Position numbers and translations under genes: made by a program. DNA of 64,000 nt, taken from Hyaloperonospora brassicae (taxonomy: Eukaryota > Oomycota > Peronosporomycetes > Peronosporales > Peronosporaceae). The stretch covers positions 1 to 64,000 of the forward strand of contig CANTFL010000579.1 in assembly GCA_947650285.1 (NCBI GenBank). The letters are read 5' to 3'. Below the pieces are notes generated by a model that was given only the letters and a program-made list of their open reading frames with translations, was not told where the DNA came from and did no database searches. The first letter of the stretch is position 1; the number at the start of each line of letters is the position of its first letter. Of this stretch, positions 3,335 to 31,309 are shown piece after piece.

Positions 3335-5104
3335 TGTAGTGAAGTCGATCTCACAAATTCGCTTGTGTGAGTGTCGATCTTCCACTTGCCCGGACTTGCC
3401 GACTCACGGAGGGGGTACTCCGATCCGTGCCTTGCTGTATAGTCTTGTGCTCACCTTGTGTACCCGTCGGTTGGGCTGGCTTGAGCTCTTCGTAACGGCC
3501 TTGGGAGATGTTGATCTCGCTGAGAGGTTGGGTTGAGAGTTCGCTTCCGGTGCGGAAATATTCACACCACGAACAGGGTTCTGCGATCTTGATCTTGAGT
3601 CGCGGCGATCTCTATTTGGAGATGTCGCGATCTCGATCTTGAATCACACCGATCTCGATTTGTCTTCGGGATCGGGGTCTTCGCTGTGCGGAAATCTTCA
3701 CTCAGCAAATAGTAGTCTTGCGTCGATCTTGCGTTGGGATCGGTCCGATCTGGTCTTGGGATCGGCCGATCTTGCCGGAAGTGCGCAATGTGGGTGGATC
3801 GGTTCTTGGTTTCGCCAAAATGAAACGTGCCGATCTGCCCTGTAGATCGCTTCGGTCTTGCTCGGTCTTGTCTTGAACGCCTTGTCCAGATCTTCTGACC
3901 ACTTGAGCCGTCTCGCGATCTTGTGTCCAAAATCCTTTTCCTTTACCGTTGTTTGCTGCTACCCTAGCAGTTTGAGTTGAGTTGAGTTACCTTAACCCCA
4001 CCTTGGCCAAACAATCCAAGGTGAGTACACAAAACACGGTGCGGCGAAGTCTCTTGACTTGACGGGGAGGCCAAATCATCCTGCCCGAGAAGAGAAGTCT
4101 GCGACGTGCTTTATATGTAAAAACGGTAACTGTTTTATTAGCTAACCAAATTAATAGCCATCCTATACTTAAGCCTATTCCAAACTGTAGGTCACTTTCC
4201 AAACCGATATCACCTTTAAGCTTGACCGCCCCCTTGAATACGTGTCGAAATCTCGTGACCTGTGCTCCAAAGATAGCGCCAATACTCCCGATATCGTACC
4301 TAGACACCAAAAAAGGAGCAAATTCCAAAGGCGGTACCAAATACCCAATTTTGGTACCGAAAAGTCCAAAATAGTATCCAAATGCCGAATGTGTCTAAAT
4401 CCATTTTGCGACGTCAATTCAGCCGGCTTCAACTGGCTTTTTCGGTCTGAACTTTTAGGACATCACTCATGGACCTTCATCAAGCATGTCTAATCACAAT
4501 ACAAATAGCTGCATCATCGATATATCCATAATCAGCAGGGAACATGACCGATCTGATGCCCAATTCGAGATCGTTGAGGATCGACATAGTGCGATCCGGC
4601 CATATATGTTCTTCCGTTCATTGTGCATACTCCGATACCATCCTCAATGGTTTATCCGCTCAATGGGACCATCCACAGTTCTCACAACGGTCCCACGGAC
4701 TTCCACAATCATCCACACTTCCAGATCGGGCCATAATTAACCTAAATCAGTACTCCCTCTGGGAGACCGGTAAGGAGTATCACCGATCTGCAGGATGTTA
4801 CACCTTCGTCACAGAGTCATATCACATCACCTGGTCCCACATCCTTGTCCCAGATCCTTTACCCAGATCGCCTCCTGGAAATCGTTCTATTTGTCGGCTT
4901 GTCCCAGATCGCTCCGTCTCAGGTCGATCCGTATCCATCAGTCTTGGTGACAGTTGGGCCAGATCGCCGATTCCCGTTGAGATCGGTTTCCATCTCCTCA
5001 TTGGATCACCACGTACCATGGACCTCGTTTTCCACCAGTAAGTGACACCTTGACTGGGTGGCCACCGATCCACGTCCCATCATTTTATTAGTGACTTTAC
5101 CACA
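3335..5104 (-). repeat. Family-1a LTR copy B, full length and shared by two elements
   Basis: The repeat runs from TGTAGTGAAGTCGATC to GACTTTACCACA, 1,770 bp with TG..CA ends inside longer inverted termini. It matches LTRs A, C, D and E along its length. A primer-binding site lies on its left (3,314-3,333) and a purine tract on its right (minus strand AGGGGGCGGT). It thus serves as 5' LTR of the truncated element to the left and 3' LTR of the pol-bearing element to the right. That arrangement is typical of unequal recombination between LTRs. GATC is strongly enriched throughout. Confidence 0.85.
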
Positions 5105-5114
5105 ACCGCCCCCT
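5105..5114 (-). promoter_or_regulatory. Polypurine tract next to LTR B
   Basis: On the minus strand AGGGGGCGGT directly precedes the TGTGG start of LTR B. This is where the plus-strand primer for reverse transcription is expected. The same tract lies next to LTR E (60,885-60,894), and a variant (AGAAGGAGGT) next to LTR C, so it fixes LTR orientation in all three. Confidence 0.65.
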
Positions 5115-5193
5115 GTACTGAAGTCCGTTTGGGCAGCAATCGGCTTCAGTCCATTCACTCCTAAACTTTGTTCCAAGCACTCAAGTCCATCCC

Positions 5194-7890
5194 ATGACCT
5201 CCTCGACGCGTCTCCCCACTTCGCGAGTACCCTCGGAGTGTTCTACCGCACTTTTGTCGCCGGATCGCGATCTGTCCCCAGATCGGCCAATCTAGAGCAG
5301 CATATTCCAATAGTGCCAGATCGGCCGGAGTCCCCAGGTCATTTTAGTTCCGGCCGGATCGCTATCCATCGTCATGGGATTGCCAGACCGCCCGCCTGAG
5401 CCGATCAAGCTTCCCGCATCTCCGGCTACTTGGGTGCGTTTGGATCCGATCTCCTGTCCACTGGCGAGTCTCGTGGAGGGTCTGCTCCGACTGCGAGCAT
5501 TTCCGGCCACATTCCAACGGTTTCTACCAGCGACGTCCGTCTTAAGTTGGCTACGATATCTTATTTATGGGATCGAGAGGCTACCTTCTGCAGCCAAGCC
5601 GATACAATTCATGCGCTTCATTAGTCATCCCGAGATGCGGTCGCCCGGGGGGATCGCTTGCAAGACGAGATTGATTCTATAAACAGATCGACCGCCAGTT
5701 TTGTCTTTTCCGTCCAGCGTCGATATGATATGATGTAAGGCCGCTACGTCAACGCAATACATTATCTGAGCGACTGCAAGCGAGCTCTGCGGACACATCG
5801 AGATCAATCTGCGCAGATTCTTCGGCTACGCGCTCTGTTACGTGCCAGCGATGAGGATAAGGGCAGTTTGAAAAGACAGGTGAAAACTTTGCAAGACCAA
5901 GTCCGTTCTCTCCAAGTCAAACTCAATTTTCTCCGACAGCAGCGTGAACAACTGACCTCCGACAGGTCTTTCCTTCACATAGACGTTTTGCATCCGAAGA
6001 AGGAATTGGATCGGTCTCAGGTGGAGATCGCAGTGGGCCTGGTGTCGATCAGCGATCTCATTCAACAAGTGAATAGTTTATCTCCTTTTGAAAGGTCAGT
6101 TGGCACTTTCGAAGATGGAGAACGCCAACCTCCGCCGTCAGCTTGCTGAACACCTCAAGGTGTACGACCAGCTACAGGTGGCGGAACAGGATCGGGATCG
6201 GGCTATAGCGAAACACCAGACTCTCCTTCACACAGTCAATAGTGCCATACTCGGGTCCCTTTCGTCTGCGTTGTCCGCTCGGTCGAGACCCAGGAGTGCC
6301 TCTCGCGCCAGATTGCCCCCTGCTTCCGGTATTCGGGGATCGAGGTCACTTGCAAACAAATCCAGATCGAGATCGCCTATCCCGCCTGCCAAGCGTCGAC
6401 GTGTCCATCTACAGTCATAGTACAAGGTTTTTTTCACCACCCGTTCGGGCTCCCGGCTATAGTTGTTGAACACTTCAACACCTTCCAAGAAACTCCCTAG
6501 ATCGGCCCCACCAGAGCAATCACCCAATTTTTCTTCTTCTCCGCCTTCGTCCGCGGATTTTGGAATAAATAGGAAAGTGGGGAGCTGACAGAGTCGTGCT
6601 CTAGCTCGGATGATTGGACTCGGTCTGTGATGTCCCAATCCAGATCGGCTGCTCGTCGACGTACGAGATTGGACGATCAATACGCAAATCCAGACTCCTC
6701 GGCGGACACCCCAACAAATTCCGCTTCGTCCGTGACAACTGTTCCCGGCCAAGAACCGTCACGTCCGCCTCCATTGACCGAGCCGGAGCCTCATTATCTC
6801 TCGTTTTCGACGGCTCCGGTTGCGACTACCCCCGTGATCAGCCTTCAGGATGATGGTGGTGATGCTGGAGATGCGGATTTGTCGTTGCCGGAAGAGGCAC
6901 CCAGTGAGATCGGCTCTGCTACTTCGCCCCGTGAATTTACTGCACGCCCGTCCATCTGTCTGTACGATAGCGACAACAGCATCACCATTCCGGTACGCCC
7001 AGTGGATAACTGAGTCCTCGCGGCTGCCGACTTTGACGATCTCCCACCACTTCAGCAACCACGGGATCGTTGGATTACCAACTATATGGCACCTTCCCGC
7101 TGGGTGGCTTCTGAGATCACTCCTTGGTCGGTCTCGTGGATCGCGATGGTTTGCGTGAGGACGATGTCGATCGAGTTGTTGTTCCACCACTACTCCAAGC
7201 CCAGAAATTTCTTATATTCCCCTCCAACTTTCACAGACGGGCTCCACCTACGGGGACTTAAGCGTCTGGGCTAATCTCGCGGCAACACATTGCGGCTCTA
7301 TACGCCCGATCTACCTGGGACGACATCGTGATTCCCGTGAACCCGATCTCGTTTTCCCTGACCTGGTGGTATCGGAATATGTGCACTTGTTATTTGGAAT
7401 TGGAGTCCAGTCGATGCCAAGCGCTGTGGGAATCTACCCACGATTTTCCCATCTCTTCGGCTCAACGTCGATCTGATCGGTTCCTGCTAACATTTTGGCG
7501 TCATCGTAAACAGAGTCGATGTCGTTTTGGAGCGCGTTGAAAGAATTTCCCGAAGATGATACTCTGCGGCATGATCGACGGCTACTGCGATCTGGTATCT
7601 TGCTCGATCCATCTTTTTGCATTACCCGCGCATGCATGATAAAGGGAGTTTGATATCCCGGATCGGGGCATACTGCTGACCCAGCCGACCTGATAGAGGC
7701 TTTAAACATGGCCGACCAAGAGGATCCTTGGCGCAACCAGTTCCGCGTCGCCCCTGGGGACCATACGGGATCGCAAATTCCTCGTCTCCAGAACAAGTTT
7801 AAGCCTGCTACATCGTCTGTACTCCAGATCGGTGTTCGAGATCGATCATCTTTCTTGATTGTTTACATCGTTAATCGTTTTCTTCAATAA
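5194..7890 (+). pseudogene. aORF copy B: antisense ORF 3' of pol, family 1a
   Basis: This plus-strand coding region lies between LTR B and the minus-strand pol, convergent with it. The start at 5,194 (protein MTSSTRLPTSR) is matched in aORF copy C at 19,058 (MTSPTRLHTSR). In order it shows a proline/serine-rich N-terminus; a coiled coil (about 5,790-6,080, with RLRALLRASDEDKGSLKRQV, then LRRQLAEHLKVYDQLQ at 6,130-6,180); an SR-rich basic stretch ending PPAKRRRV near 6,400; a serine-rich linker; and a C-terminal domain (7,330-7,830) with SFSLTWWYRNM and MADQEDPWRNQF. Copy E has the same order. Stops and frameshifts (for example near 5,290 and 7,010) make this copy defective. I do not recognise the protein family. 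Coiled coil and NLS-like segment suggest a nuclear, self-associating protein, which is inference. Confidence 0.7.
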
Positions 7891-8109
7891 TTACTCATTT
7901 TATAGCTCCCACAATCACTAGTCTGTCTCTGTCCACATCGTTCGGTAAGGTAATTCATTGGACTGCTTCCATACTCACTCACACACACACCTCCTTCTTC
8001 CAGCATATACTGCCCCCAAGCACATCTTGCAACCCGCCCTTCAGCCTGTGCTACAGTCTAGCACACCTTGTTTCAACCGTTAAATTTCGTCCGACTGACT
8101 TTCATGTGA
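7891..8109. other. Spacer between convergent aORF and pol
   Basis: About 220 bp separate the end of aORF B from the chromodomain end of pol. It holds a short CA run (7,977-7,991) and loosely repeated AGCATATACTGCCCCCAAGCACA-type segments. The same spacer follows aORF E at 63,743-64,000, so it is a conserved part of the element. It would be the shared 3' region of two convergent transcripts; I see no clear polyadenylation signal. Confidence 0.5.
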
Positions 8110-8328
8110 TTGCATCATTCCGAGACGGTTCCTACTCACCCGATCCCGTTCGAACTTATGCAAGATCGCTCCACAACTCAGATCGGCCTCACCCAACCAA
8201 CACAGGTCGGGATATCCTTTCCACTTCACCAGAAACTGTCGGTGTTCTCGCCTACAACGGGTTTATCGACCAGATCGCACGTCCAATATTTCTTCTACTT
8301 CGTATTTTCCCTCTTCAAGATCGTTTTC
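8110..8328 (-). pseudogene. Chromodomain at the end of family-1a pol
   Basis: After a TGA near 8,329 the minus frame continues as a chromodomain: EGKYEVEEILD, then RQFLVKWKGYPDLCW and an acidic, hydrophobic C-terminal helix. Chromodomains of gypsy 'chromoviruses' bind methylated histone tails and steer integration. The aromatic/basic FLVKWKGY core is intact. The final residues usually reading WEP are CWLGE here, so binding may be lost. It is the distal end of the pol reading from 13,140. Confidence 0.7.
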
Positions 8329-9603
8329 TCAACTGTCCTCTGGTAGCAGAGATTCATCAAAATCCAAGCGATCTGCTTCATCTATTGTCAGCTCATGCTT
8401 CAGCCGTGCAGGGAACGTCTTTACCTTCTTCAGCTTCGATAGATGTACAATCGGAAATAGTCGATATGCGGTTCCGGCGATCTTCAATTTCACCGCGTGA
8501 TCTCCGCAAATATCCGCAACTCGGAATGGGCCATGCCACATATGCACTAACTTCTTCGCGTATCCTTCCTTTACTCGATCTTAGTATATCCATACTTGTG
8601 TACCCACTTCGATCTCGTGTTGCCCCAAATCTTCATTGTGCCGACCTTCTCTCTCCTGGATCGCGACTCGTAAGTTATCGTTCACTGCAGATCGAGCTCG
8701 TTGGTATTGCCTTTGGATATTGTATCTCCACCTCTTCGGATCGCGATCTCTCGTTCTCGTGTTCCCCACAAATAACGTAGCTTCCAACGTCGATCGTGGT
8801 ACCCACCCATGAATCAGAAAAAATGGGGTATCCCCCCGGATCCGATCTTGTACAGTGTTAGTTGCGAATGTGAGCCGCTCAGCATACTCATCCCAGTCTC
8901 GTTGATCAACATCATCCACGTACATCTTGAGCGCTCTCGTCAGTGTTTGCACTATTCGTTCGGCCGTTCCATTTGGGTGTGGTCTATAGGCCATGGTAGT
9001 ACGCTGCTTTTCCCCTACGATCTGGCTGAAAGCTCGGATGAAATCGGACATAAATCCCGGTTCCCGATCGTGCCTGATAAACTCGCTAGCTCCAAAACGT
9101 CGGAACACGCATTCTTCGTAATTCTCCGCAATCGTCTGTGCTATCCGTGACGAGCTAGCTTTTGCGATCACATACCCCGAGAAAAGATCTACCCAAATGA
9201 GCAGCTCAGTGTTCCCTTTGAAAGACTTAGGCAACGACGGGATTTGATCCATTGCGATGATCTGGAATGGATAGGTTGTTTGTAAATTACCAGGTGATCT
9301 CCCATGGATCATCGGACATCCCTTTCCGGTCTCACAATCGGTACACTCGCCTACATATCGTTGCACACTCCGGTACAGCCTTCTCCAAGGATATTGCGAC
9401 CTGATCTTCCGGTACGTCCTGCCAATACCTTGGTGGCCTCCCTCCAGACTTGCGTAGTAACGGTGCAAAAAGCCCTGTTGCAACGCCTCTGGGATCACTA
9501 GACGCATCAAACCATCGCGATCTTCTGACTCTCTTTTCGCCATGGGGCAGAAGAAAAGCAGCATGTTCTCGTCGATATCGTACTCTGGCGCTATCTTTCC
9601 CAC
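8329..9603 (-). pseudogene. Integrase of family-1a gypsy pol
   Basis: The frame 9,603-8,581 (340 codons), continued to 8,329, is a Ty3/gypsy integrase. In order it shows an HHCC zinc finger (HRYYASLEGGH .. CTDC), the DDE core (D in IIAMDQI, D in FIRHDREPG, E in PNGTAERIVQT), a GPF module (HMWHGPFRVADI) and the linker IVHLSKLKKVKTF leading to the chromodomain. Integrase joins element cDNA to host DNA in the nucleus. The usual SDRDP is HDREP, keeping the catalytic D. This is one of the longest clean domains in the minus element, with a frame break near 8,560-8,580. Confidence 0.85.
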
Positions 9604-9699
9604 ACCTTCACTTTTTAGCGTCCAGACTTGATATATCGCCGTTCAGATAACTCTTGAGGTTGAAGATCCAACGCTCTTCATCCTTAGCTTGGCCAATTC

Positions 9700-10481
9700 G
9701 TCGAGTTCTAATCCTCTGTACTATCTACTACTCTATCACTTCGGGCTGATGGCGTATCCTCTCGGCCGGTCTCGTGACCGCAGCTAAACGAGCAAGCTGT
9801 CCATCCTGCTTGGGCTTCAACAATTCATCGAGACGGTTCACACTAATCATATTTTGTCGATATTCTTCAGCTACCACCGTTCTTCCGTTTCGTTCTGCAA
9901 TGCTGTGCTGGCGAGTCAATTCGCGCTTTGTTTTCATTATCGCTTCATGTGTTGTAACTCATGATTCGGCCACGATCGCAATTTGTCTAACTCTTTGTGC
10001 CTCAACATTTGAAGGCCCGGTGCCTTTCAGTCAATCTCGCCGCGAATCTGTCGGATCACCAAATTGGAGTCTCTACAAAGAATTACTCGACCCCTGTCCA
10101 GATCGTCAGGTAATTTGAAGCATTAAGCAAGCCATTATACTGAGCTTCATTCACGGTGAGGTCGAGAGTGTATCTGGAATCTGCCGCCACGATCGTCCAC
10201 TCAGGGAACCTCCATATCACAGCGCTGTACGAACCTCCTTTCTTCTTTATCCTTTCCTTTTCATTGAAGCTGTCCACCAGCAACTTCTCATCCACTTCCA
10301 CCGTGGGTGGTGGCATTGATATCTGGAGACAACAGTCCTTTCGCGGGGTTATTGCGATCAGCATCTCTTCCACCTCTTTTCTCATGGAGTGATGCTCGCT
10401 GCTAACATACCCAAGATCTATTCCTCTCCTCTCTCGCATATCTTTACCTCCATAGTCGAGTTCTACAGCAAAGCAGCCCAC
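9700..10481 (-). pseudogene. Second (additional) RNase H domain and linker, family 1a
   Basis: The frame 10,481-10,083 has the layout of an extra RNase H between the RT-linked RNase H and integrase: LLVDSFNEKERIKKKGGSYS, then AVIWRFPEWTIVAADSRYTL and TVNEAQYNGLL. Plant Tat and some oomycete gypsy elements carry such a dual RNase H. The first catalytic Asp survives in VDSF and the Glu in NEAQY. The later GDS motif is lost in a frame break before 10,083. The linker at 9,937-9,728 is rich in Lys, Arg and Glu and leads to the integrase. Confidence 0.7.
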
Positions 10482-10599
10482 CGCACTAATCTCCTATTAA
10501 GTCCTCGAGGTTGCATCAACCACAATAACGTGGAATGTCGGGTCAGCACAGTGATCTCCCGTGAAGGTAGTGTGGTAAACACACATCCAAAACACGAAG

Positions 10600-11142
10600 T
10601 TACGCCAGTACGTCCTTCTCCACCGTCCCGTAGTTAAGTTCATTTGGCTTCAAAGTACGGCTAGTAAACGTCACCGGATGATACACGCCATCATACTCCT
10701 GTATCAGGGCCGCTGAGACAGCCCACTTACTAGCATAAACAACGATTACGGGAGGACGATCCGGGTCGAAGTGTTTAAGCATGGGAGCTGTAGATATCTT
10801 AGCTTTAAGCATCGTGAACGCAACCTTAGCCTCCTTCCATCGCTTTTCGTTCTACCATTCGTCTCCTGCTGCGAGCTGAGATCGGCCTATATCGAAGAAA
10901 TCCGATTCCCTTATCTCATATAACACAGCGGCGTACACTGCGAAATCCTCAACGAAACGGCGGTAATAATTCAGGCTTCCGAGAAAAGATTGCATAGCTC
11001 GCAGCGTGTTAGGAAACGGGATGTTGATCAACGACTCTAAGTTCTTGGTCTGAGCCTCCAGACCATCCATCGACACTCGATGTACCAAGTATTCGACCTT
11101 ACGGCACCCCCAAAAACTCTTCGTGAGACTGATAGACAGGTT
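10600..11142 (-). pseudogene. RT thumb/connection and first RNase H, family 1a
   Basis: Two minus frames continue the RT. At 11,088-10,852 LRAMQSFLGSLNYYRRFVED is the standard gypsy RT thumb sequence. At 10,812-10,600 PVIVVYASKWAVSAALIQE and HPVTFTSRTLKPNELNYGTV are the first RNase H, which degrades the RNA template. The frames are joined by a shift near 10,850, and the domain is cut by a stop after VEKDVLA. It lies between the RT (11,143 onward) and the second RNase H. Confidence 0.75.
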
Positions 11143-13140
11143 CTACTTATCACATGCTTCTAGCAGTCGTTCCACTTTCGCGTACAAATATTTCCATGAT
11201 GTGGCAAGTATGAGAATATCGTCAATATAAGATCGGTGTCCTAGTATAGAAAGCCGTTGATCTGTCTCAGGTTCTCCATCTTTGAACACGTCGATCGGGC
11301 CATCTGACGCTGATCTCTGGCCGATCTTGAGATATCCATACAGCGCATTGTCCAACAGACGTTGGAGATCTGAGGTGCGTTCTTAAGCCCAAAAGGCATT
11401 CGGAGCCACTCGAAAAGACCAAACGGCGTGACAAACGCTGAGATCAGTTTTGCTCGTTCGGTCATTTCCACGACCCAGAATCAGCTGGCCATGTCTAATG
11501 AACAGCATCATAGGGCTTTATCCAAATCCTCCAGCAGATCGCTGATCAACGGCATGGGGTAAACCATCAGGTGTGTCAGCTGGTTCGCACTTCGATAATC
11601 GATACAGAGACGAATATCCACTCCAATCTTCTTGATGATCACCACTATCGGAGACGCCCAAGGTGACGTGGATAGCTGAACGATCTTGGCCGCTAACAGA
11701 CATTTGATGAGGTCCGACAGCTTCTCCTGATATTTGACCGCGACCGGACGAACTCTTTGCGCTATCGGTGCGGCTCCACCGACATCGATATCACAGATCG
11801 CGCCTCGTCCCGCTAGTGGTAGAGCGTTGCCCTTCCCCATAAGAAGGTAACGAATCTTCCATATCCGCGATCTGAGTCTTTGTTGATATGCGGTGAGAGA
11901 TACATCCGGATCGCCGATTTGAATGTCGTCAATTTTAACTTCTTCCATAGCGGTAGACATCTCCGGTAACACCGCCAGGTATTGCTCGATGTCCTCGGTA
12001 AGCAAATCTCCACAGTCGTGATAGTCGACTGGTGATTCTGCGGTGTCGGCTTCGTCGATCTTGGACGACTCTTTCTCTTCAGGTTCTTGTGCTCCCTCGG
12101 GCCGATCTGATCCTGATCTGTTGTCTGCATGATTTACGTCCAACGAAAGCTGTTTGTTGTCTTGCTCTCCTTTTTCGGTCCCGCGATCCCGTCTCATCGC
12201 GATCTCGATTTTGATCCCAGGATCGTTATCCCTCGACGATAGATTTGTTTCATCGGGTGGATTCGATCTGGAAACGTTGACCGTACCATCCTTTGCAGCC
12301 ACAGTATCCGCATGTGGCAATTCGTCGTCGCCGACTTGCTGCGTTACCATGGATACTACTGGAGGTGGATCCTTTAGCACATCGGACGGACGTTTCATGA
12401 TGTATCTGGGCGTGGCGTACGTAGGGCGACCTACCAATGGTCTGATCTGTTTTTTTAGGAGTCCATTCACTCGATCCGTCGTAGCCTTATATGCCAGAGT
12501 CTGCCACTCTTTGTACTTTCCCGATCCGACCGTCACGAAGCCTTGAGTCCGTGGTACCATATCGCCTTCCGTCCACAAGCCTAGTATAGTGTGGGTGGGC
12601 AGTATGATCTTACGGTCGCCAATGTTGGTCATCTGCAGGTATATCGTCTTACCCAACCCCGAGATCACCGTGGGTACCCAGTCTGGTCCTCTAGCGATCC
12701 ACAACTCCATCTTAGCCCCACCTATCGTGATCTTTACTTCTCTTGACTCTCCGACCGGGATCACTACATGTTGGTCCTTCGCCGTTACGTAATGTATCTT
12801 CGATCCGTACGCGATACGACGTCCTGCGAGATGAATACGGATTTCTTCTGGTAGGTATAGCGCGCCATCAGCTAGATCGAGCCGCACTCCGACAGGTATC
12901 ATAACGTCCATCACCAGAATCGCTTCCTGTCCTTCTAGATCGCCTACCCACACATTAAAGTAATATACCAGCGATCCCGCTAAGGTAACCTTGATCTTGG
13001 TATGTCTCATCGTCATATATGGAGTTTCTCCGATCCCGATACATTCTTGTCGTTGACTTTCGTCAATGTGACAACCGATCGTACGATCTAAGGTTCAGTC
13101 AAATATCGACACTTCAGCACCGGAATTAAAGAACAGAGTC
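11143..13140 (-). pseudogene. Protease and reverse transcriptase of family-1a pol
   Basis: The 502-codon frame 13,016-11,508 carries the C-terminal part of the aspartic protease (LVMDVMIPVGVRLDLADG), an acidic linker rich in Asp/Glu/Ser, and the RT fingers (SPWASPIVVIIKKIGVDIRL, CIDYRSANQL). Shifted frames continue it (GLFEWLRMPFGLKNAPQ at about 11,410) to the catalytic RSYIDDILILA motif near 11,230. The protease active-site triad reads NSGA at 13,119-13,127 instead of DSGA, so its catalytic Asp is replaced, and a TGA follows shortly after. Frame breaks near 11,490 and 11,350 also disable the RT. Confidence 0.8.
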
Positions 13141-13224
13141 GCTTCCACGTTGTTGATCTTGCCAACAGCTTTCGCCTGTTTGAACCACTTCCCGCGGAGA
13201 TTAATGTTTCCAATATCCGCAAGA

Positions 13225-15160
13225 TTACCCATAAGCGAGATCAATTTCCTTAGTTGGTTCGGATCTCGAGTACTCGTCGATCCTCTTCAGACTGGAGACG
13301 GAAGAAACACGTTTTGACTTCGAACGAGATATATTTGTTTCCATATCTGCATTCTGCTTACTCTCGCGATCTTTCTTCTTTTTTTCCACGTGTGCAATAA
13401 TACAGAGCCCAGAACGCTCGGCTCCTACTGGATTTGAACCTGGCGAGAGTCCTAGTTTAACATCTTCTCGGCCTTCTCTGGCAGCATCCCCGCATGCTTG
13501 TTTGGGACGTACCACTGGCGGATCATGTTGTACAACTCCTATATGGGACACTTCCCCGGGTAATGCATCTCACCGCAGTCACGACACACGAAAAAACAAT
13601 TGTCGTAGGGGTGTCCTTTTTTTCCACACTTCTGACAAGTGAGCCTCTTCCGGCAACCGAGATATCCGTGCTTGGGAGATCCGCAATGGGTACACGGCTT
13701 CGATGACATATTGCGACCTTGGTAGTCCCGACGACTATTCGAATCGACCGATCTCATATTCGCTGAAGCGTTGCAAGATAGTGTACGCCGATCCGTAGTG
13801 GCAGCCATATGGATCGATCTCAATCGATCTTCCGCATCCGATCCGTTGGCGTCCGATTCTGAATCACTGCTGATATCCTCGGTACGGACCATACTCACCG
13901 CACGTGCAGGCTTCGAAAGTGCTGAACCAGTCGTCCCCTTTTGTCTGAACTTGGACGATCCCATCATCACTTTTCCTTGACGCGATCTCCCTTGCTGGTA
14001 TCCATGCAATGTCTCCTGCATGCCATCCGCATCTACTACATTCAGCAGTAGAACCTATTCAGAGAGATCGGGATCGTACAAGGTGTCAATGAAATGGTTG
14101 ACGTGTTCCTTGCGTGCATCTGGCGCTCCATCCATCACCGGTACCTTCGCCAACATTCCCATCACGTTGAGCAGATGCAAGTACTGCAGAGGGTTTTCTT
14201 CCGACCACTTCTTCGTGTGGTAATATTGCCGGCTCGCTGACATCCCGTGTCCCGCATTAACAAAGAGGAAACTGTTGATCATTTCTTTCCAATTTAAGTT
14301 CGTCGATCTGCGCAGCTGTTGGTACCAGTAGCGGGCTGGGCATACCAGGAGATCGCCGAACACCAGACGTCTCTCTTCGTCCGATGCTTGGTCCCGGAGG
14401 AACGCTGATTTATTTTTCTGATCCAGGTCTGACTTTGCCTACTTCTCGATCCGTTCTCGAGAACTCTTTCAGCTCGGAGATCGCTGAGGTTCTGATCCTT
14501 TGAATGACGGAGTTGGTCCCGTTAGTCACACCGGACGCGGCAACTTGAGATCGACTTGGCTCGGCCATCCATAGATCGTCCGGATCATATTCTGCCCCCT
14601 TCTGGATCTGATCGTAAGTGCTGGACTCCACCGATTCCATATCCTTATCCGGCTTGTCATAGATCTCTTGCGAGGGTTGGGTATAAGTACGGCGATCTGG
14701 ATCACGGCTCGGCTGTCTGTTCACTCGTCTGGCTACACGTTGTTCTGCTTCGTGTTTCTTCATCGCCATATTGAAATATCGACTTAGATCATTCTCTTCC
14801 TGATCTCCCAACCTCATAGGTGCACCGGTCGGCCGTGTTGGTACGTCGATCTTGGTTTGCTCTTTCAAGGCTTCGATCTTGGCCTTGCCGATCCGGTCCT
14901 GTAGGAACGATCCTCCTGACGGTCCTATAGACATCCGGCGGATGCTGATGGATTCGTCTGACTCGCTCTCAGAGTCATCTGAGGCATAGTGGGGAGATCC
15001 TGTCAGGTGCTCACGTAGTGGGTCCGATCGTATAGCGACCTTGTCTTTAAGCTTAGTGGCCTCGCCCACCATAAGTGTCATGATCCCCACGAAATTGCTC
15101 CTTGCGTCCTCCAACTGTTTCAAGCTGCAGGTCAGCAGTTCATCTTCATCAAAATTCAGA
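13225..15160 (-). pseudogene. gag of family 1a with three zinc knuckles
   Basis: Read leftward from about 15,160. The N-terminal part (15,123-14,410) has SISIRRMSIGPSGG and a charged middle. The retrotransposon gag core follows (14,363-14,055: ARYWYQQLRRSTNLNWKEMI, RQYYHTKKWSEENPLQYLHL). Then a basic region and three CCHC knuckles near 13,560-13,700: CTHCGSPKHGYLGC, CQKCGKKGHPYDNC and CRDCGEMHYPGKC, the last with a shortened spacing. A lysine-rich tail (VEKKKKDRESK) lies at 13,390. Gag binds and packages element RNA in the cytoplasm. Frames break near 14,390 and 14,030. The gene is cut at about 15,160, where family 1b begins head to head, so its leader and 5' LTR are absent. Confidence 0.8.
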
Positions 15161-16166
15161 AGGCCGACGTGACAACAGACGTGATGGTCACCGTTTCGAT
15201 CATTAAGAGTGACATGAAGAACGCCGACTCGTCAGCAGAGACAGACAACCGCGGCGCGAAGGACGAACAGGGCGATACGAGTACGATGGGTCCGTCGTAT
15301 TACCCTCGCATCGGCAACTACGGACGATCTGCGGGCTGGAGTCGATGTATTGAGGCTTAATCAATACGCTGATAATTACGAGTCGAAAGAGGATGTTAGC
15401 GATGAAAGCGACTACGACTACACATTCGAATACGAGTCGGACTCTGATGCCGATTACATGGAGGTGGACAGAGAAGTGAACAGAGTGGCGTTACCTGCAG
15501 AACGCGGTTAGCGACCACGACCTGGTCCTAATAAAATGGGTCAAGCAGACATACCGGCTGAGCATGAGGTACGACCTGACCCACGTGACCAATCCAACTA
15601 GCGTCATCGGCCAGACCACTCGAGAGAACGCCGACCATGGGGTCCCTGTGGAGCGTGTGGTGCAGCAGGCCACGACGCTCACTTTTGCAGGCGCCGTTGC
15701 AAATTCTGCAAACATGTGCACGACGTTGGAATATGCGACCTGCTGACCGAGTTCGAACGACTCATTAAGTTCGTCAAGTCATCGATCGATCGAACAACTG
15801 TGCCCGAAAAACTTCAACACATCTATTAGCCAGGCCATTTAAACTAGAAGGCTTGCCGACTTTGACTGGGTCGGGAAACGACGGGCTGCCTCAGTCAGTG
15901 GAACCAGCAGTCGACGCGAACTACGTGTTTGGTTTTTTTGGAGACACAAGAAGGCCCGGCAATGAAGCGTGTAGAAGGTTGGGGGGTGTAAGTGATGGGA
16001 AAGGGGGGTGGACGCATCACCCAACTCTCGGCGACAGATGGAATTGGATTAGCCACTGAAGCTGCTACAAGGGGAGCGACTAGGATGGCGGTCGTCAAGG
16101 AAGTTTGATCGGAGAATGAGAATTAGAGCTTTTGTGATGGGGGCAGTGAGTGATCAACGGACTTAG
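15161..16166 (+). pseudogene. gag-like region of family 1b
   Basis: Plus-strand remnants of a gag. An acidic stretch rich in Asp, Glu, Ser and Tyr lies at 15,360-15,480, a conserved segment at 15,535-15,680 (VLIKWVKQTYRL), and one zinc knuckle CKFCKHVHDVGIC at 15,698-15,736. At least two stops interrupt it, and its 5' end is truncated at the junction with the minus-strand element. Codon and base use are less GATC-rich than in family 1a. The assignment rests on the zinc knuckle and on position before the protease. Confidence 0.55.
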
Positions 16167-17590: not shown

Positions 17591-18774
17591 GGCCAAGTTG
17601 ATCGACGTATTGAAGAAACATGAACAGATCATGATCTCGAGTGGGAATATAGTACAACCTCTAGCGTTCGGAGTTGTCTTGCGAAATCGACGTAAACGAA
17701 CACGATCCTATTCAACAACGGGCTCGACGCGTACCACTACGACATCTGACAAAACTGTACGTGTGACTGGAAGGATTATTGACGGCAGGACCCATTGCGT
17801 TCTCACAGAGTCCGTGGGCCTCGCCGATCGTAATTGTCCCCACGAAGTATGGCGTGGACGTATCATTGTGTATTGACTACAAGATGGTTAATGCGGTGAC
17901 GGTAGACATGGAATACGCAATGCCTTTAGTGGAAGATCTGCTGACGGATTTAGAAGGCTATCAAAGGTTTTTCTCTCTTGACGCTGCTAGTGGGTTCTAA
18001 GGAATCATAATGACTGATACACTGAGACATATATCTGATTTTGTGTGCTCTCTAGGGCACTTTGAATGGTTGCAGATGTCATTTAGATTAAAAATCACCC
18101 GAATGATCTATCAGCGACTAATTGACAATGCCTTAAGGGGCTACGTTCAGCCTAAGGGAGTATGGAGTAAGTTCTCGGAGAAAGTGCTGAATGTGGAGAA
18201 AAAAGCAGCGAATAGACAGACGATGGTATCATTATAATACCATCATGAGTTCGACCCACACACACACCGTCACTAAGTTTGAACCAGATTGCTACATCAA
18301 CACAGGGCCCACGCACGACAACGAATGGTCAATGACCCTGAGAACGAATAATTCTAAACAGGAAAACCCGACGAATCTACAATTTTATTGGTGTTCAAAC
18401 GTCGATCGTTCGTCGATGATATTTGTTTTGGTGGACGGAGTTTTGATGACCGCTTAGCAACACTCAATCAGTTGTTAGAAAGATTTACTGAGTGTCGAAT
18501 AAGGGTGAGTTTTACTACGAGCATCTTGTTCAACCGCGAGTTGACTTCCCCTTCTATAAATGAAACGCGCAAGGAATCGCAGCTGATCCAGGGAAGCTGG
18601 CAGCTATCGCTGAGATACCCTTTCCGACGTCAAGGAAAGGAATACAAGCATTCTTACGAGCTCTCAACTACTACAGTCGGTTCAATCAGAATATAGCTTT
18701 CTATGGGGCGGTCAACTACCAACTGAAGGAGGACGATTTCCTGGGGTCACCCACTCTGGCTACAGCTCGTAAAT
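17591..18774 (+). pseudogene. Reverse transcriptase of family 1b, interrupted
   Basis: RT fingers and palm are recognisable: SQSPWASPIVIVPTKYGVDV, SLCIDYKMVNA, RFFSLDAASGF, LGHFEWLQMSFRL, then FVDDICFGG (catalytic DD) near 18,410 and the thumb with LKEDDFLG near 18,730. Stops at 17,998, 18,235 and 18,456 and a small foreign-looking segment at 18,240-18,390 disrupt it. Coding similarity ends at about 18,774, where the aORF fragment of an inserted family-1a piece starts. The same polyprotein resumes at about 22,352. Confidence 0.75.
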
Positions 18775-19058
18775 GGCGATGCCACGAGAATCGGTAACGA
18801 TCTAGCTGGATCGAGATGACTGGGGAAATCAGGACGATCTAGAACGGCAGGAACACGTTCCCCTTGATCGGGCGATCTGGGCAACGGAGGCGATCCGGCC
18901 GGACCAAATTGTCGTGAGGACCTAGGCCGATCCGAAAATGTGGGAGCATGCTCCCCGTGATCTGATGATCCGGACGGACGATTGCTATCCGGAGACAGAA
19001 CCGCAGTGATGTTGTCCGAGAGGGCCCGCGAAGTGTGGAGACGCGTCGGGGAGGTCAT
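18775..19058 (-). pseudogene. aORF copy C, N-terminal fragment
   Basis: The minus frame starts at ATG 19,058 with MTSPTRLHTSRALSDN. It runs through repeated proline/serine motifs (SPDQGERVPAV, FPSHLDPARSLPI) matching aORF copies B and E. It is truncated at about 18,775 where it abuts the broken RT of family 1b. It lies 90 bp from LTR C with a purine tract between, the same order as copies B and E. The start codon and first residues are conserved with copy B, which supports translation from this ATG. Confidence 0.7.
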
Positions 19059-19147: not shown

Positions 19148-20992
19148 TGTAATAAGGTCACTAATCAAATGATGGGACGTGGATCGGTGACCACCCACAT
19201 AAAGTGTCACTTACTGGTGGAAAATGAGACCATGGGACCTGGCGATCCAATAAGGGATGGGAGGAGATCCCAACGGAGAAAGACGGTCTGATCCAACTAT
19301 CGTCAGATTGATGGGTATGGAACGATCTGAGACGGGGCACGGAAAGGGATTATTTCCACGCTACGATCTGGGACAAGGAATGATTTCAACGGTGCGATCT
19401 GAGACAAGGGACTGGATTGCTTCAAACGACCGATCTATAGCACAATCATTCTGAAAAAGGTGCATCGAGGACCAGGCGATGTGAGGTGACTCAATGACAA
19501 AGGTGCCGAAATCCAGCTGATCGGTGACACTTTGTACCGATCTCCCGAAATGAGTACTGATTTAGGTTAATCATGGGCCGATCTGGAAGTATGGATGTTT
19601 GTATGAGCCCGTGGGACCGTTGTAAAAACTACGGATGGTCCCATTGAGCATATAAACTCGTGAGGATGGTGTCGGAGTATGCTCAATGGACGAAAGAACA
19701 TATATGAACGGATCGCACTGCTTCTATCTTCAACAATTTCGAATTGGACCTTAAATCGGTCATGTTCCCTGCTGACATTGGATATATCGTCGATGGAGAT
19801 GTTGAATCGTAATTAAGATACTTAATGAAGGACCATGCGAAATTTCCGACAAGTTTTGACAGGAAAAGCCAGTGGAAGCCGGTTGAATTGACGTCGCAAA
19901 ATGGATTTAGACACATTCGGCATTTTGGATACTATATTGGACTTTTCGGTACCGTATTTGGAATTTGGTCCCTTTTGAGTGCCTAGGTACGATATCGGGA
20001 GTATTGGCGCTATCTTTGGAGTACAGGTCACAAAATTTCGGCACGTGTTCAAGGGGGCGGTCAAGCTTAAAGGTAATATCAACTTGGAGAGTGACCTACG
20101 GTTGGGAATAGGCTTAAGGATAGGTTGGCTATTAATTTGGTTGGCTAATAAACATACTTGAACTCTACTTCTTCTACTCACGACGCACGTTCGCCTCCCC
20201 TCTTCTCCGGGCAAGATTGATTTGGCTTCCCCGGCGGGTCAAGGCGCGCGTGTTACAAGGACACAGAAGACCGATCTTGGATTGTTGGCCAAGATCGAGA
20301 AGAGCGATCTCGGGATATTTGGCCCGGATCGATCAAGTACTCACACTCAACTCAATGGCTAGGGTAGCAGCAACATCAGGAAAAGGAAAAGGACATTGGT
20401 TACAAGATCGCGAGGCAGCTCAAGTGGTCAGAAGATCTGGACAAGGAGTTCAAGACAATACCGAGCAAAACCGAAGCGATCTACAGGGCAGATCGGCACG
20501 TTTCATTTTGGCGAAACCAAGCGACCGATCCGCCCACATTGCGCACTTCCGGCAAGATCGGCCGATCCCGAGACTAGATCGGACCGATCCCAACGCAAGA
20601 TCGACGCAAGAATACCATTTGCTGAGTGAAGATTTCCGCACAGCAAAGACCCCGATTCCGAAGACGAATCGAGATCGGTGTGATTCAAGATCGAGATCGC
20701 GACATCTCCAAATAGAGATCGCCGCGCCTCTAAATCAAGATCGCAGAACCCCGTTCGTGGTGTGAAGATTTCCGCACCGGAAGCGAACTCTCAACCCAAC
20801 CTCTCAGCGATATTGACATCTCCCAAGGCCGTTTAGAAGATCTCAAGCCAGCCCAACCGACGGGTACACAAGGTAAGCACAAGACTATACAACAAGGCAC
20901 GGATCGGTGTACCCCCTCCGTGAGTTGGCAAGTCTGGGCAAGTTGAAGATCGACACTCACACAAGCGAATTTTTGAGATCGACTTCACCACA
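19148..20992 (+). repeat. Family-1a LTR copy C
   Basis: A 1,845-bp repeat from TGTAATAAGG to GATCGACTTCACCACA, the reverse complement of LTRs A, B and E. It is preceded by purine tract and aORF fragment on the left. On the right it sits directly against a family-2-like RNase H reading on the minus strand, cutting that protein within its conserved VADAL motif. The sense strand carries an open frame of about 180 codons (20,217-20,765) rich in RSR/QDR repeats, generated by the GATC-rich sequence. Confidence 0.8.
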
Positions 20993-22351
20993 GTAGCGCA
21001 TCAGCGACGACGTTAAGTCGTCCTGGTTTGTATTTTACGGAGAAGCTGTACTCCGCGAAGAAAGGCAGCCACCTCGCCATTCGTTGCGAGAGTTGTGTAC
21101 TTTTCACGGCCGTGCGTAGTGACGCATGGTCCGTATATACGATGACCGGTCTATCTCTGAAGAGATAGACGCGGAACTAAGCCGGTGTGTACTTCATGGC
21201 AAGGAGTTCGTTGTCATGCACTGAGTAATTGCGTTCAGCTGGTTTCAGCTGATGCGCGTGATAGCAGACGCCGCAAAATGGGCCGTATGTGTCATACTGC
21301 ATTAACGCACAGCTGATAGCTAAATCGCTGGCGTCACAGACCACATGAAAAGGTCTGTCCTGATCTGCAATCGCCAAGATGGGAGATTGAATTAATCTTT
21401 TCTTATGCTTTCAAAGGAGGGCTGACAGTCAGCGTTCCATGACCACTTCACATCTTTCTTGAGCAAGCAAGAAAGATGAACAGTCATCTCGGCGTAATTG
21501 CGCGAGTACTTGTGTAAGTACGTCGCTAAGACAAGGAACTTACGAAGTCCCTTGACATCGACTGGCACTGGCCAGCCGGTGATCGCCTTAATGTTTTCGG
21601 GATCAGGGCGCACGCCGTGTTTATCTACGATGAAACCAAGAAGTGGTATTTCGCTAGCCGCGAATATACACTTCTTGAGATTGGCATACAACTTATGCTT
21701 GCGCTTAAGTTTAGGGACCTGACGAACATGAGTTCTACGAACCTCAACGTCCGTCTTTCCGTCCATAGCCCGTCTATGGACGAACACATCGTCGAAGTAA
21801 CTCGGTGCGAAGTCTCGAACCGGTCTCAACAGATTTGTGACACATCTGTTGTATGTTGCAGGGGCATTGCTCAGCCCCTGTGGCATCACTAGCCACTCCC
21901 ACAGCATACCTTTGGGGGTGATCACTGCTGTTTACGGTATGTCCCGTACACGCATGAAAATATGATATAACCCATCCATCAGATCCATGGACGAAAAGAT
22001 GGTACTCTTTGACATACCATCTATGATTACGTCCTTCCTCGGTATCGGCGTCTGGGCCGATACCGTTGCAGCATTCAACTTTTGGAATGCGTGTACTATC
22101 TGCCATCTTTCTGTAATTTTTCGCACACAGAAGGTCGGAGATCTGTGAGGGGAAGTTGATTATCTCAAATGGTCCGCTGTTAAGCGATCGGCAAAGAACT
22201 TGTCGATCGCTAGCACCTGTTCACAAGGCAGTGGCCACTGCTTCATACCACAGTACGTCGAGCCAGGCTTGAGCTTGATCTCGTGTCGAGTGAGTGTGTC
22301 CTTAGGCAACTCGCATGGCACGGATTCAGGGACAATCGCTAAAGCACGCAT
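20993..22351 (-). pseudogene. RT and RNase H fragment of a family-2-like gypsy element
   Basis: Read leftward: HEIKLKPGSTYCGMKQWPLP (22,260), WQIVHAFQKLNAATVSAQTP (22,080), [20 protein letters not shown] (21,890), SYFDDVFVHRRAM (catalytic YFDD, 21,790), LRKFLVLATYLHKYSRNYAE (21,530), RNase H FHVVCDASDLAISCALMQ (21,340) and SVHDNELLAMKY (21,200). The order matches the pol at 33,840-35,130 but the sequence is clearly a different subfamily. Stops at 22,160, 21,926 and 21,390 break it. It ends inside the RNase H at LTR C and at about 22,352 against family-1b pol. It came in as part of a composite insertion. Confidence 0.8.
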
Positions 22352-22550: not shown

Positions 22551-24413
22551 TGTGGCGAAGTCACTACTCAAATTTTCTACGAGGATCGGTGACCACACAT
22601 TTGAGGCGCCACTTACTGGTGGAGAATTAGACCACGGGACCTGGCGATCCAATGAGAGATGGGAGGCGATCCCGACGGAGAAAGACGATACGATCCAACT
22701 GTCGTCAGACTGACGGGTATGGAACGATCTGAGACGGGGCGTGAAAAGGGATGATTCCCATGCTGCGATCTGGGACAAGGAATAATTTTAACGGTGCGAT
22801 CTGGGACAAGGGACTGGATTGTACTAAACGGCTGATCTGAAGCAGAATTACTCTGGGAAAGGTGAATATGGGACCAGACGATGCGAAGTGACTCTGTGAC
22901 AAAGGTGTTGAAATCTATTAGATCGGTGACATTCTATACCGGGCGCCCAAAAGAAGTACTGATTTAGGTTAATTATGGACCGATCTGGAATTGTGGATGT
23001 TGGTGGGAGTCCGTGGGACCGTTGTAAGAACTATGGATGGTCCCATTGAGCAGATAGACCCTTGGGAATGGTATTGGAGTACACACAATGAACGGAAACG
23101 ACATATAGGGCCGGATCGCACTGTGTCGAGCCTACTCGATCTCGAATTGGACGTCAGATCGGTCATGTTCCCTGCTGGTTATGGATATATCGATGATGGA
23201 GCTATCGTATGATGATGTACATGCTTGTTGAAGGTCTATGAGAGATGTCCCAAAAGTTCAGACCGAAAGAGCCAGTGGAAGCCGGTCGAATGGACGTCGC
23301 AAAATGGATTTAGGCACATTCCTTATTTGGGTACTATTTTGGACCTTTCGGTACCAAAATTGGGTATTTGGTACCGTATTTGGAATTTGGTCCCTTTTGG
23401 TGTCTAGGTACGATATCGGGAGTATTGGCGCTATCTTTGGAGTACAGGTCACGAGATTTCGACACGTGTTCAAGGGGGCGGTCAAGCTTAAAGGTGATAT
23501 CGACTTGGAGAGTGACCTACGGTTGGGAATAGGCTTAAGGATAGGTTGGCTATTAATTTGGTTGGTTAATAAACAGACTTGAACTCTACTTCTTCTGCTC
23601 ACGACGCACGTTCCCCTCCCCTCTTCTCCGGGCAAGATTGATTTGGCTTCCCCGGCGGGTCAAGGCGCGCGTGTTACAAGGACACAGAAGACCGATCTTG
23701 GATTGTTGGCCAAGATCGAGAAGAGCGATCTCGGGATATTTGGCCCGGATCGATCAAGTACTCACACTCAACTCAACTGCTAGGGTAGCAGCAACATCAG
23801 GAAAAGGAAAAGGACATTGGACACAAGATCGCGAGACGGCGCAAGTGGTCAGAAGATCGGGACAAGGCGTTCAAGACAAGACCGAGCAAGATCGAAGCGA
23901 TCTACTGGACAGATCGGCACGTTTCATTTTGGCGAAACCCAGGACCGATCTGCCCACATTGCGCACTTCCGGCAAGATCGGCCGATCCCGAGACCAGATC
24001 GGACCGATCCCAACGCAAGATCGACGCAAGACAACTATTTGCTGAGTGAAGATTTCCGCACAGCGAAGACCCCGATCCCGAAGACAAATCGAGATCGGTG
24101 TGATTCAAGATCGAGATCGCGACATCGCCCAAGAGTGACTGCCGCGACTCAAGATCAAGATCGCAGAACCCCCGTTCGTGGTGTGAAGATTTCCGCACCG
24201 GAAGCGAACGCTCAACCCAACCTCTCAGCGAGATCGACATCTCCCAAGGCCGTTACGAAGAGCTCAAGCCAGCCCAACCGACGGGTACACAAGGTGAGCA
24301 CAAGGTTATACAGCAAGGCACGGATCGGAGTACCCCCTCCGTGAGTCGGCAAGTCTGGGCAAGTGGAAGATTGACACTCACTAAAGTAATTTTGTGAGAT
24401 CGACTTCACCACA
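22551..24413 (+). repeat. Family-1a solo LTR copy D with target-site duplication
   Basis: The repeat spans 1,863 bp from TGTGGCGAAGTCACTACTC to GATCGACTTCACCACA, plus-oriented, with GTCG on both sides (22,547-22,550 and 24,414-24,417). Removing it with one GTCG restores the family-1b frame: IKV joins AHTLLVGRAIHVYTRY. It therefore inserted into family 1b and then lost its internal region by LTR-LTR recombination. The termini are imperfect inverted repeats: TGTGGCGAAGTC at one end, TGTGGTGAAGTC on the other strand. Sense-strand frames of 135 and 175 codons (23,638-24,045, 23,817-24,344) recur in LTRs A, B and C. Confidence 0.9.
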
Positions 24414-26990: not shown

Positions 26991-27173
26991 GGATTCCCGA
27001 CAAGTCCAGTGGCCGATACGAGGTAGAAGCCATACTCGACGATGATACGTCTAGGTCAACACCTACTGACAGAAGCCAGCGAAAGTTCTTGGTAAAATGG
27101 GTGGGATACGATGAACCCACGTGGGAACCATTGACCAACTTGTCATGTGGAGGCTTATTGTTCGACTACTTGA
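26991..27173 (+). pseudogene. Chromodomain of family 1b
   Basis: SGRYEVEAILDDDTSRS, then RKFLVKWVGYDEPTWEPLTN and a short helix: a canonical chromodomain with the aromatic residues (Y, W, W) intact. It is in frame with the integrase end except for a TAA at about 26,969. It is better preserved than its family-1a counterpart, which lacks the WEP end. It would direct integration toward marked chromatin. Confidence 0.8.
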
Positions 27174-27773
27174 TGCGAAAGAAGAGAGAGAATTGTCTGC
27201 AGATGGCGCAAGTCGCAGACGAACGGTAGAAATACCATCACTACGCGTACTCTCTTTCTGTGAAGACTAGCAGGCAAAAAGAGAAGTGAAGTTACCGCTT
27301 CAAGATGTATTGATGCATGGAGACAGAGATGAATTAATTTACGAGATGAAGGAACGAAGTCAAAACAGAGGCGACTAAATGTCAGCGATGGACGAGCTGG
27401 AATCATCATGCGACAGCGTAGGGAAAACAGTCAGAAGCGTCGACGAAAATCTGCATACCATCGCGGTTTTCGGGCTCGGGAGCAGAGGGATCGACGACCG
27501 GAGGAGAAGCTTCGTCTGCGTCGACATCCTCGACGACCTGTGATTCCACTTCACTCTCTGACGTGCCGACCGGAGCAAAGACAGGGAAGCCCGGATTGCA
27601 TCAACGGAAACACGTGTTATTGGGATTCTCCGATGGACGAGTCAGCCACCAAACACGCCAGTTTTCAACTTGGTCAAGCACTTCAAGTTCGTTGATCCAG
27701 TTCACCTCCGGGTACCCACGCATAACTCATGATTGGATACACAGGAACTGACGGCTCAAAGAGAAGTTCGGGG
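27174..27773. other. pol tail and spacer before the family-1b aORF
   Basis: The plus strand can be read as a broken polar C-terminal tail (DELIYEMKERSQ near 27,330). The rest has only short frames on both strands and no motif I know. By position it equals the 7,891-8,109 spacer of family 1a, between convergent pol and aORF. Confidence 0.35.
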
Positions 27774-30773: not shown

Positions 30774-31250
30774 TGTAACGGGGTTACACGTCGGCTGGTA
30801 GTCGACGATAGGTGTGGTGCACACAAGAGAGGGGGTTACCCTATAGAGTAATTTTAGAACACAGTGAGTGTATCAATTGTTTTAAGACCGATGTCTGTCA
30901 TCAATTGATTGCGAGATCTTTTAAGAGGTTATTTAGGGCAGGTTAAATACGTTGTTCTAAGGTGTTCTTTTAGGTTAATTAAAGAAATAAAAATGCAGTT
31001 CCCCTTTTGATCAACATGAAGACACGTGCCTTGCGAGGCGTCTTGATCGGAAGGAGCTAGCAACGCCTGTAAAGGTAGCTACTCTTGATCACTCTGTGCT
31101 GTGATTCTCTTGAATCGTTTGGTCCCCCTGGAACAGGGACCGTAAGCTCTCTGAGCTTGTTGACTCTCTGAGTCGGGTTCGTAGAACCAAAGTTGCTCGT
31201 AAGAGCGTTAAGTCTTCCTCTGACTTAAGGAGCTGTGTAGCTCCGCTACA
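30774..31250 (+). repeat. Family-2 5' LTR
   Basis: This 477-bp repeat runs from TGTAACGGGG to CTCCGCTACA and is matched by 37,883-38,357. Its last third (31,103-31,244) is an uninterrupted chain of short perfect hairpins (see findings). A decayed relative lies at 54,606-55,047. The LTR supplies promoter and polyadenylation functions, but I cannot pick out a TATA box or initiator with confidence. Confidence 0.95.
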
Positions 31251-31252
31251 CT

Positions 31253-31270: not shown

Positions 31271-31309
31271 ATCTACGCCTGAGTCGGTAACGATTGATCC
31301 TCTTTGACG

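What the first reader, a model, noticed from the sequence alone, without database searches (positions are those of the whole stretch)
5194..7890. Large conserved antisense ORF (aORF) between pol and the 3' LTR in a dual-RNase-H gypsy family
Seen: a plus-strand protein region lies convergent with minus-strand pol and next to the 3' LTR. A second copy (60,973-63,742) keeps the same domain order: Pro/Ser-rich start, coiled coil, SR/basic stretch, conserved C-terminal domain. A third copy's N-terminus (19,058-18,775) shares the start codon and MTS.TRL.TSR. A related subfamily (27,774-30,773 plus 38,358-38,763) has the same placement and a matching C-terminal motif. Known: plant Tat-lineage elements (for example Grande, RIRE2, Retand) combine an extra RNase H with antisense 3' ORFs. 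Inference: oomycete dual-RNase-H elements may have gained a similar antisense accessory gene independently. I know no description of this protein.
Basis: partly seen in the sequence, partly recalled or inferred. Interest (0 to 1): 0.88.

Follow-up and report, generated by a model that had tools for sequence, protein, structure and literature searches.

The report
Hidden antisense gene in oomycete retrotransposons
A family of jumping genes in a downy mildew carries, on its opposite strand, an undescribed gene for a large protein that evolution has kept intact, and plant jumping genes with the same rare enzyme layout carry an apparently unrelated gene in the same place.

Summary
The feature is real, but the window holds only dead copies. 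Both window copies are broken by frame changes and stops. The same genome holds antisense frames of 696-1014 aa, two of them in elements with nearly identical LTR pairs (2 differences in 1,865 bp; 0 in 1,189 bp).

The host pol has the Chronos layout: protease, reverse transcriptase, RNase H (degraded, by eye), second RNase H, integrase, chromodomain. Of 150 scored pol ends, 124 have the antisense gene, intact or broken, convergent within 223-700 bp. Intact copies show purifying selection in the best-sampled group: dN/dS 0.19-0.39 overall, 0.06-0.21 in the C-terminal domain; integrase end 0.05.

The protein has a Pro/Ser-rich start, a 240-residue helix (probable coiled coil), a linker with NLS-like motifs, and a confidently predicted helical domain without Pfam or PDB match. 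All 59 named homologues (of 69) are from Peronosporales.

Best explanation: a nuclear accessory regulator expressed from the 3' LTR side; that function is inferred. Antisense 3' genes are known in plant and fungal elements; this family, and its presence in Chronos, appear undescribed.

The parts
5194..7890 (+). antisense gene (aORF), copy 1, group A; ATG at 5194; broken by frame changes and stops; original stop lost, last frame ends at 7890
3335..5104 (-). 3' LTR of the copy-1 element (77-85% identical to the LTR of a young genomic copy)
5105..5119 (-). polypurine-tract-like stretch at the inner LTR border (by position and composition)
8080..15231 (-). remains of gag-pol of the copy-1 element: chromodomain trace 8080-8259 (below cut-off), integrase 8581-9642, second RNase H about 10083-10493 (by reading only; no Pfam match), native RNase H 10600-10851, RT/PR 10852-13094 (by reading), gag 13539-15231 (by reading)
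60973..63742 (+). aORF copy 2, group A; broken; its C-terminal frame 63353-63742 was the first genome probe
58963..60884 (-). 3' LTR of the copy-2 element (three blocks, 75-81% identical to a young LTR)
18747..19058 (-). aORF copy 3, N-terminal fragment (103 aa from ATG)
19148..20996 (+). LTR beside copy 3 (80-93% identical to a young LTR)
22551..24413 (+). LTR 98.4-98.9% identical to the LTR of the young C892 element
27774..30773 (-). aORF of a diverged group (D), broken; reader adds 38358-38763, not tested here
25418..27229 (+). integrase and chromodomain of the group-D element, convergent with its aORF

Best explanation
This is the third gene of Chronos-type Ty3/gypsy elements of a downy mildew, with homologues across Peronosporales. 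It is a separate gene on the strand opposite gag-pol, lying between pol and the 3' LTR and starting about 90-100 bp inside the LTR border (measured in groups A and B). It encodes a roughly 600-980 aa protein: a disordered Pro/Ser-rich start, a long coiled coil, a disordered Ser-rich linker with NLS-like motifs and a conserved SRSxxRR motif, and an all-helical C-terminal domain. Shown: the gene, its placement, its purifying selection and the spread of its protein family. Inferred: it is transcribed from the 3' LTR side, oligomerises through the coiled coil, enters the nucleus, and acts in trans as an accessory regulator of the element (transcription, silencing escape, or handling of incoming cDNA), as proposed for plant antisense proteins and reported for retroviral antisense proteins. 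I put about 0.95 on a conserved protein-coding gene and about 0.45 on the nuclear-regulator role.
For: Open frames of 867-1014 aa in 8 group A loci (one, L061, only 694 aa from its first ATG), 901 and 925 aa in group B, 696-706 aa in group C. Convergent pairing, intact or broken, at 124 of 150 scored pol ends: 42/46 at 90% identity or more, 53/60 at 75-89%, 29/44 at 62-74%; 0 same-strand neighbours among the 178 aORF places compared. Young hosts: LTR pairs with 2 differences in 1,865 bp and 0 in 1,189 bp. dN/dS 0.19-0.39 whole and 0.06-0.21 C-terminal over 10 pairs of 5 group A copies. Shifted same-strand frames give 1.09-2.94 in the two A pairs tested. pol integrase end 0.055 and 0.050. Sixty-nine homologues from three searches; all 59 with a named source are Peronospora, Phytophthora or Nothophytophthora. 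AlphaFold models: helices 170-353 and 355-409 of P0001 and a helical domain, residues 251-510 of P0028, block pLDDT 81-98. K[KR]x[KR] in 49 of 60 linkers against 6.7 expected after shuffling (related sequences, so not a probability).
Against: No RNA or protein evidence was available, so transcription, localisation and function are untested. The two group B pairs give 0.68 and 0.81, and their C-terminal parts 1.16 and 1.90 on 14 and 7 changes, as expected of decaying copies but not evidence of constraint in B. One copy with an 1801-aa pol frame (C385) has lost all but about 26 codons of the gene. 26 of 150 pol ends had no partner found. Of 18 pol frames of 1,000 aa or more, 17 have the gene, but only 10 have a frame of 690 aa or more running through the C-terminal domain. 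Linkage to pol in Phytophthora was not tested. An oomycete-type start motif was seen in A and B only, not in C (consensus recalled).
Confidence: 0.6

Rival explanations
1. Pre-integration-complex factor: the protein binds the element's integrase, cDNA or gag and steers nuclear entry or target choice, in concert with the chromodomain.
For: NLS-like motifs and long helix; the same elements carry a chromodomain; the idea is raised for plant aORFs (PMC7264820).
Against: An antisense gene is an odd place for a particle protein, since its mRNA is not the genomic RNA (inference); no gag-like or nucleic-acid-binding domain was recognised over cut-off.
Confidence: 0.25
2. Structural or assembly role: a scaffold that forms bodies or modifies particles.
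For: Long helix and disordered, Ser-rich regions.
Against: Separate antisense gene; NLS-like motifs.
Confidence: 0.12
3. The antisense RNA is the functional product (self-limitation by double-stranded RNA), the protein being incidental.
For: Convergent transcription would make double-stranded RNA; proposed as a parallel possibility in PMC7264820.
Against: Codon-level constraint in the C-terminal domain comparable to that of integrase, absent in the other same-strand frames.
Confidence: 0.06
4. Host gene captured in a few copies, or a chance open frame in GC-rich DNA.
For: One P. palmivora gene model joins a DOT1 domain to the aORF C-terminus (P0041).
Against: Present beside 124 of 150 pol ends in diverged groups; dN/dS far below 1; 22-38 stops per alternative frame in the two A pairs (whole gene).
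Confidence: 0.02

Closest known systems
Chronos Ty3/gypsy LTR elements of oomycetes (PMC5348765; section 5 in full, other passages by term search)
   Same: Dual RNase H, integrase and C-terminal chromodomain, in Peronosporales.
   Different: The section and figure legend I read describe no gene beyond ORFs 1 and 2; 'antisense', 'additional ORF' and 'opposite' occur 0 times in the main text. Figures and supplements not seen.
Plant Tat/Retand antisense ORFs (aORF-3R; Grande gene23, RIRE2, Retand) (PMC7264820, parts 1 and 2 of 3 read; PMC11963269, abstract and passages)
   Same: Between pol and 3' LTR, antisense, in most copies of a family; some nuclear; Tat elements likewise gained a second RNase H (PMC10508981, passages).
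   Different: Most Retand antisense ORF clusters carry PF04195, not found in these proteins; different host kingdom and pol lineage.
brtn of Boty-like elements in Botrytis (seen only as a citation in PMC8365987 and a mention of Boty in PMC7264820)
   Same: Antisense gene in an LTR element outside plants.
   Different: Fungal; sequence not compared here.
HBZ and other antisense proteins of HTLV (mentioned in PMC11963269 and PMC7264820, passages)
   Same: Antisense gene expressed from the 3' LTR side; nuclear. A leucine zipper in HBZ is recalled.
   Different: No sequence relation tested; much smaller protein (recalled).

Membership tests
Chronos LTR retrotransposons | Second RNase H next to the Ty3/gypsy RNase H | tested here: met
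   RT_RNaseH then RVT_3 in L066 pol (E 3.6e-23, 1.9e-09) and L068 pol (9.2e-18, 7e-13); in the broken window copy the second domain is by reading only (no Pfam match)
Chronos LTR retrotransposons | Native RNase H has lost catalytic residues, added one keeps them | tested here: inconclusive
   By eye on L066: native reads VYAS and TRHSTL where TDAS and TDH are usual (recalled); added domain has SFDGSA, NEAEYN, CGDSN, QSADR. No structural alignment done.
Chronos LTR retrotransposons | Chromodomain after integrase | tested here: met
   PF00385 31.2 bits over cut-off 25.1 in L066; no match in L068, whose pol piece was cut short by the fetched slice
Chronos LTR retrotransposons | Reverse transcriptase falls in the Chronos clade | not tested
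   No reference Chronos sequences were at hand
Chronos LTR retrotransposons | Host in Peronosporales or Pythiales | tested here: met
   Peronospora destructor protein P0009 is identical to L054 over 695 of 719 aa; lineage Peronosporales
[quoted passage not shown]
   124 of 150 pol ends have it convergent; position next to the 3' LTR checked in two young elements and the window copies
Plant Retand-type antisense ORF (TRP28) | PF04195 domain | tested here: not met
   Absent in Pfam scans of 24 homologues, 14 of them at E up to 10, and of three intact own frames; genome search found none but its controls were silent too
Functional antisense regulator (HBZ-like mode) | Antisense transcript from the 3' LTR | not testable with these tools
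   No RNA data
Functional antisense regulator (HBZ-like mode) | Nuclear localisation | tested here: inconclusive
   NLS-like motif in 49 of 60 linkers; no localisation data

The most novel reading that the evidence does not exclude
A previously unseen protein family with a possibly new helical fold is a regular third gene of Chronos elements across Peronosporales. With plant Tat elements, it shows that gypsy lineages which gained a second RNase H also gained an unrelated antisense 3' gene. A second, unrelated antisense gene in another gypsy lineage of the same genome suggests that antisense accessory genes are a recurrent, under-annotated solution in LTR elements generally.
Probability: 0.5. 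Interest if true: 0.78.

Novelty: new variant of a known kind. Interest (0 to 1): 0.64.

Why it matters
In the text I read, Chronos is described from gag and pol alone; this adds a third gene whose C-terminal domain is under selection comparable to integrase. It extends the parallel between plant Tat and oomycete elements from the second RNase H to a second trait, whose functional linkage can now be tested. It also suggests that a set of 'hypothetical protein' entries in Phytophthora and Peronospora proteomes are transposon genes, which matters for gene counts and annotation.

Tried and rejected
Chance frame: rejected by dN/dS, frame controls and stop counts. One antisense frame (anti1) also shows low dN/dS (0.31-0.36 whole) because its synonymous sites coincide with third positions of the real frame; it holds 8-38 stops over the whole gene.

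Transposase_28 in the own genome: none, with silent controls, hence uninformative alone. Viral contigs: 7 pattern matches, none a relative.

Group A-B and A-C comparisons are mostly saturated at synonymous sites, so selection there rests on protein similarity. A start-site motif was looked for upstream of the ATG: TCACTC at -39 in all 5 A copies printed, TCATTT at -38 in the one B copy, nothing in the 3 C copies; not relied on.

Literature: searches listed no description of an antisense gene in oomycete elements. They cover open PubMed Central papers only; I saw listings capped at 3 of 3, 20 of 21, 3 of 3, 15 of 38 and 12 of 27. One search (Peronospora destructor genome) listed nothing useful among 8 of 2,346. 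Passages of PMC10508981, PMC12477816 and PMC5408684 were also seen.

Full report
What is in the window. The facing minus strand holds pol remains: an integrase zinc-binding domain (8581-9642) and a Ty3-type RNase H (10600-10851). Copy 2 (60973-63742) also begins beside such an LTR; its pol would lie beyond the window end. Copy 3 is an N-terminal fragment at 19058-18747. None is an open gene. Compared with an intact relative, copy 1 falls into five matches in changing frames with 9 stops inside them, and copy 2 into seven (two overlapping a third) with 11 stops. The window therefore shows fossils.

Intact copies exist in the same genome. A search of the 100.6-Mb assembly with the last 129 aa of copy 2 scored 150 of 592 candidates, a number of them inside very long open frames. 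I fetched 12 loci chosen for long frames; their antisense frames are 867-1014 aa in 8 group A loci (L061 has 881 aa stop to stop but 694 from its first ATG), and 925, 901, 784 and 646 aa in 4 group B loci, of which L064 was cut by the slice. A third group, C, has frames of 696-706 aa in three of five further loci fetched (two of the three read the same); of the other two, C801 is broken and C385 lacks the gene. A Peronospora destructor protein is identical to the L054 frame over 695 of its 719 residues, so the genome is probably that species.

The host elements. Around the copy on contig 892 lie a 5' LTR, a gag frame of 836 aa, a pol frame of 1784 aa, the antisense gene and a 3' LTR; the LTRs (1,865 bp) differ at 2 positions. 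The group B copy on contig 95 has LTRs identical over 1,189 bp. Pol contains, in order, protease, reverse transcriptase, RNase H, a second RNase H (RVT_3), integrase and, in L066, a chromodomain. That is the layout defined for Chronos (PMC5348765, section 5 read). I did not build a reverse-transcriptase tree with named Chronos elements.

How regular is the gene? The last 195 aa of pol found 150 scored places of 1,452 candidates. I compared them with 178 aORF places: all 150 and 28 of the 152, chosen as not already listed. Of the pol places, 113 have an aORF match on the opposite strand, convergent, 223-700 bp beyond the end of the pol match; none has one on the same strand in that position. 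With 35 of the 151 places found by a group C probe, 11 more gain a partner (opposite strand only checked). Total 124: 42 of 46 at 90% identity or more, 53 of 60 at 75-89%, 29 of 44 at 62-74%. Broken genes count as present. The 26 misses were not examined one by one, except the telling C385: an 1801-aa pol frame followed directly by the first about 26 codons of the gene and the LTR, so most of the gene is deleted. Among 18 pol frames of 1,000 aa or more, 17 have the gene; 10 of the 17 have an aORF frame of at least 690 aa through the C-terminal domain, two have 785- and 909-aa frames interrupted near the C-terminus, one is cut by the contig end, and four are short (read).

Selection. Among five group A copies (of eight fetched; L058, L059 and L061 were left out as near-duplicates or N-terminally altered), ten pairwise dN/dS values are 0.19-0.39 for the whole frame and 0.06-0.21 for the last 225 codons. 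One group C pair gives 0.37 and 0.14. Two group B pairs give 0.68 and 0.81, with C-terminal values of 1.16 and 1.90 on 14 and 7 changes, which I read as decay of old copies. In the two A pairs used as controls, the shifted same-strand frames give 1.09-2.94; one antisense frame mirrors the real one (0.10-0.33) but is full of stops. The integrase-chromodomain end of pol gives 0.055 and 0.050 for two of the same copy pairs; the aORF C-terminal part gives 0.06 and 0.19 for these pairs.

Most of its 122 match rows in the genome contain stops. Profile comparison aligns its C-terminal part colinearly with the main family, E 1e-4, probability 57%, though a plain profile search missed it: a probable distant relative.

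How it most likely works. Shown: a protein-coding gene, antisense, starting 90-100 bp inside the 3' LTR border, kept by selection and intact in recently moved elements. Inferred: since gag-pol RNA carries it only as complement, it needs its own transcript, most simply from a promoter in or beside the 3' LTR, as reported for Grande gene23 (PMC7264820, part 2). The coiled coil should oligomerise it and the basic motifs take it to the nucleus, where I think it regulates the element's expression or protects it from silencing. Particle or integration-complex roles remain open. Codon-level constraint argues against a purely RNA-level role.

What is known. Antisense 3' genes are established in plant Tat-lineage elements and reported in a fungal element, so the kind is known. 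For oomycetes, five literature searches (capped listings) showed no description, and the Chronos paper's main text has no occurrence of 'antisense'. I therefore rate it a new variant of a known kind: a new protein family, in a lineage that converged with Tat on the second RNase H as well.

A second case. The gypsy element nested at 30774-38357 belongs to another lineage: its pol frame runs from RNase H straight to integrase with no RVT_3 match, with a chromodomain in genome copies. It has its own antisense frame between pol and 3' LTR. Genome copies hold 437-aa frames with no Pfam match, and diverged copies give dN/dS 0.23-0.52 over the part outside pol. Close copies were uninformative (0.17-1.25).

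Noticed in passing
37009-37788 (-), in nested gypsy 30774-38357: A second, unrelated antisense ORF between pol and 3' LTR of a different gypsy lineage; 437-aa frames in genome copies, dN/dS 0.23-0.52 between diverged copies, 0.17-1.25 between close ones; its C-terminal part overlaps the end of pol on the other strand.
   Followed up: partly
L071 (G000:C385:9050-12600): A Chronos copy with an 1801-aa pol frame that lost all but about 26 codons of the antisense gene; whether it moved after the loss is unknown.
   Followed up: partly
P0041 (Phytophthora palmivora): A gene model joins a DOT1 histone methyltransferase domain to the aORF C-terminal domain; annotation artefact or real fusion.
   Followed up: no
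22551-24413 (+): An LTR 98.4-98.9% identical to that of a very young element, beside more diverged LTR copies, so the same locus probably took insertions at different times.
   Followed up: no
150-181 of P0028, linker of the protein family: The SRSxxRR motif is among the most conserved positions of the family and sits on a predicted helix inside a disordered acidic region, like a docking motif.
   Followed up: no
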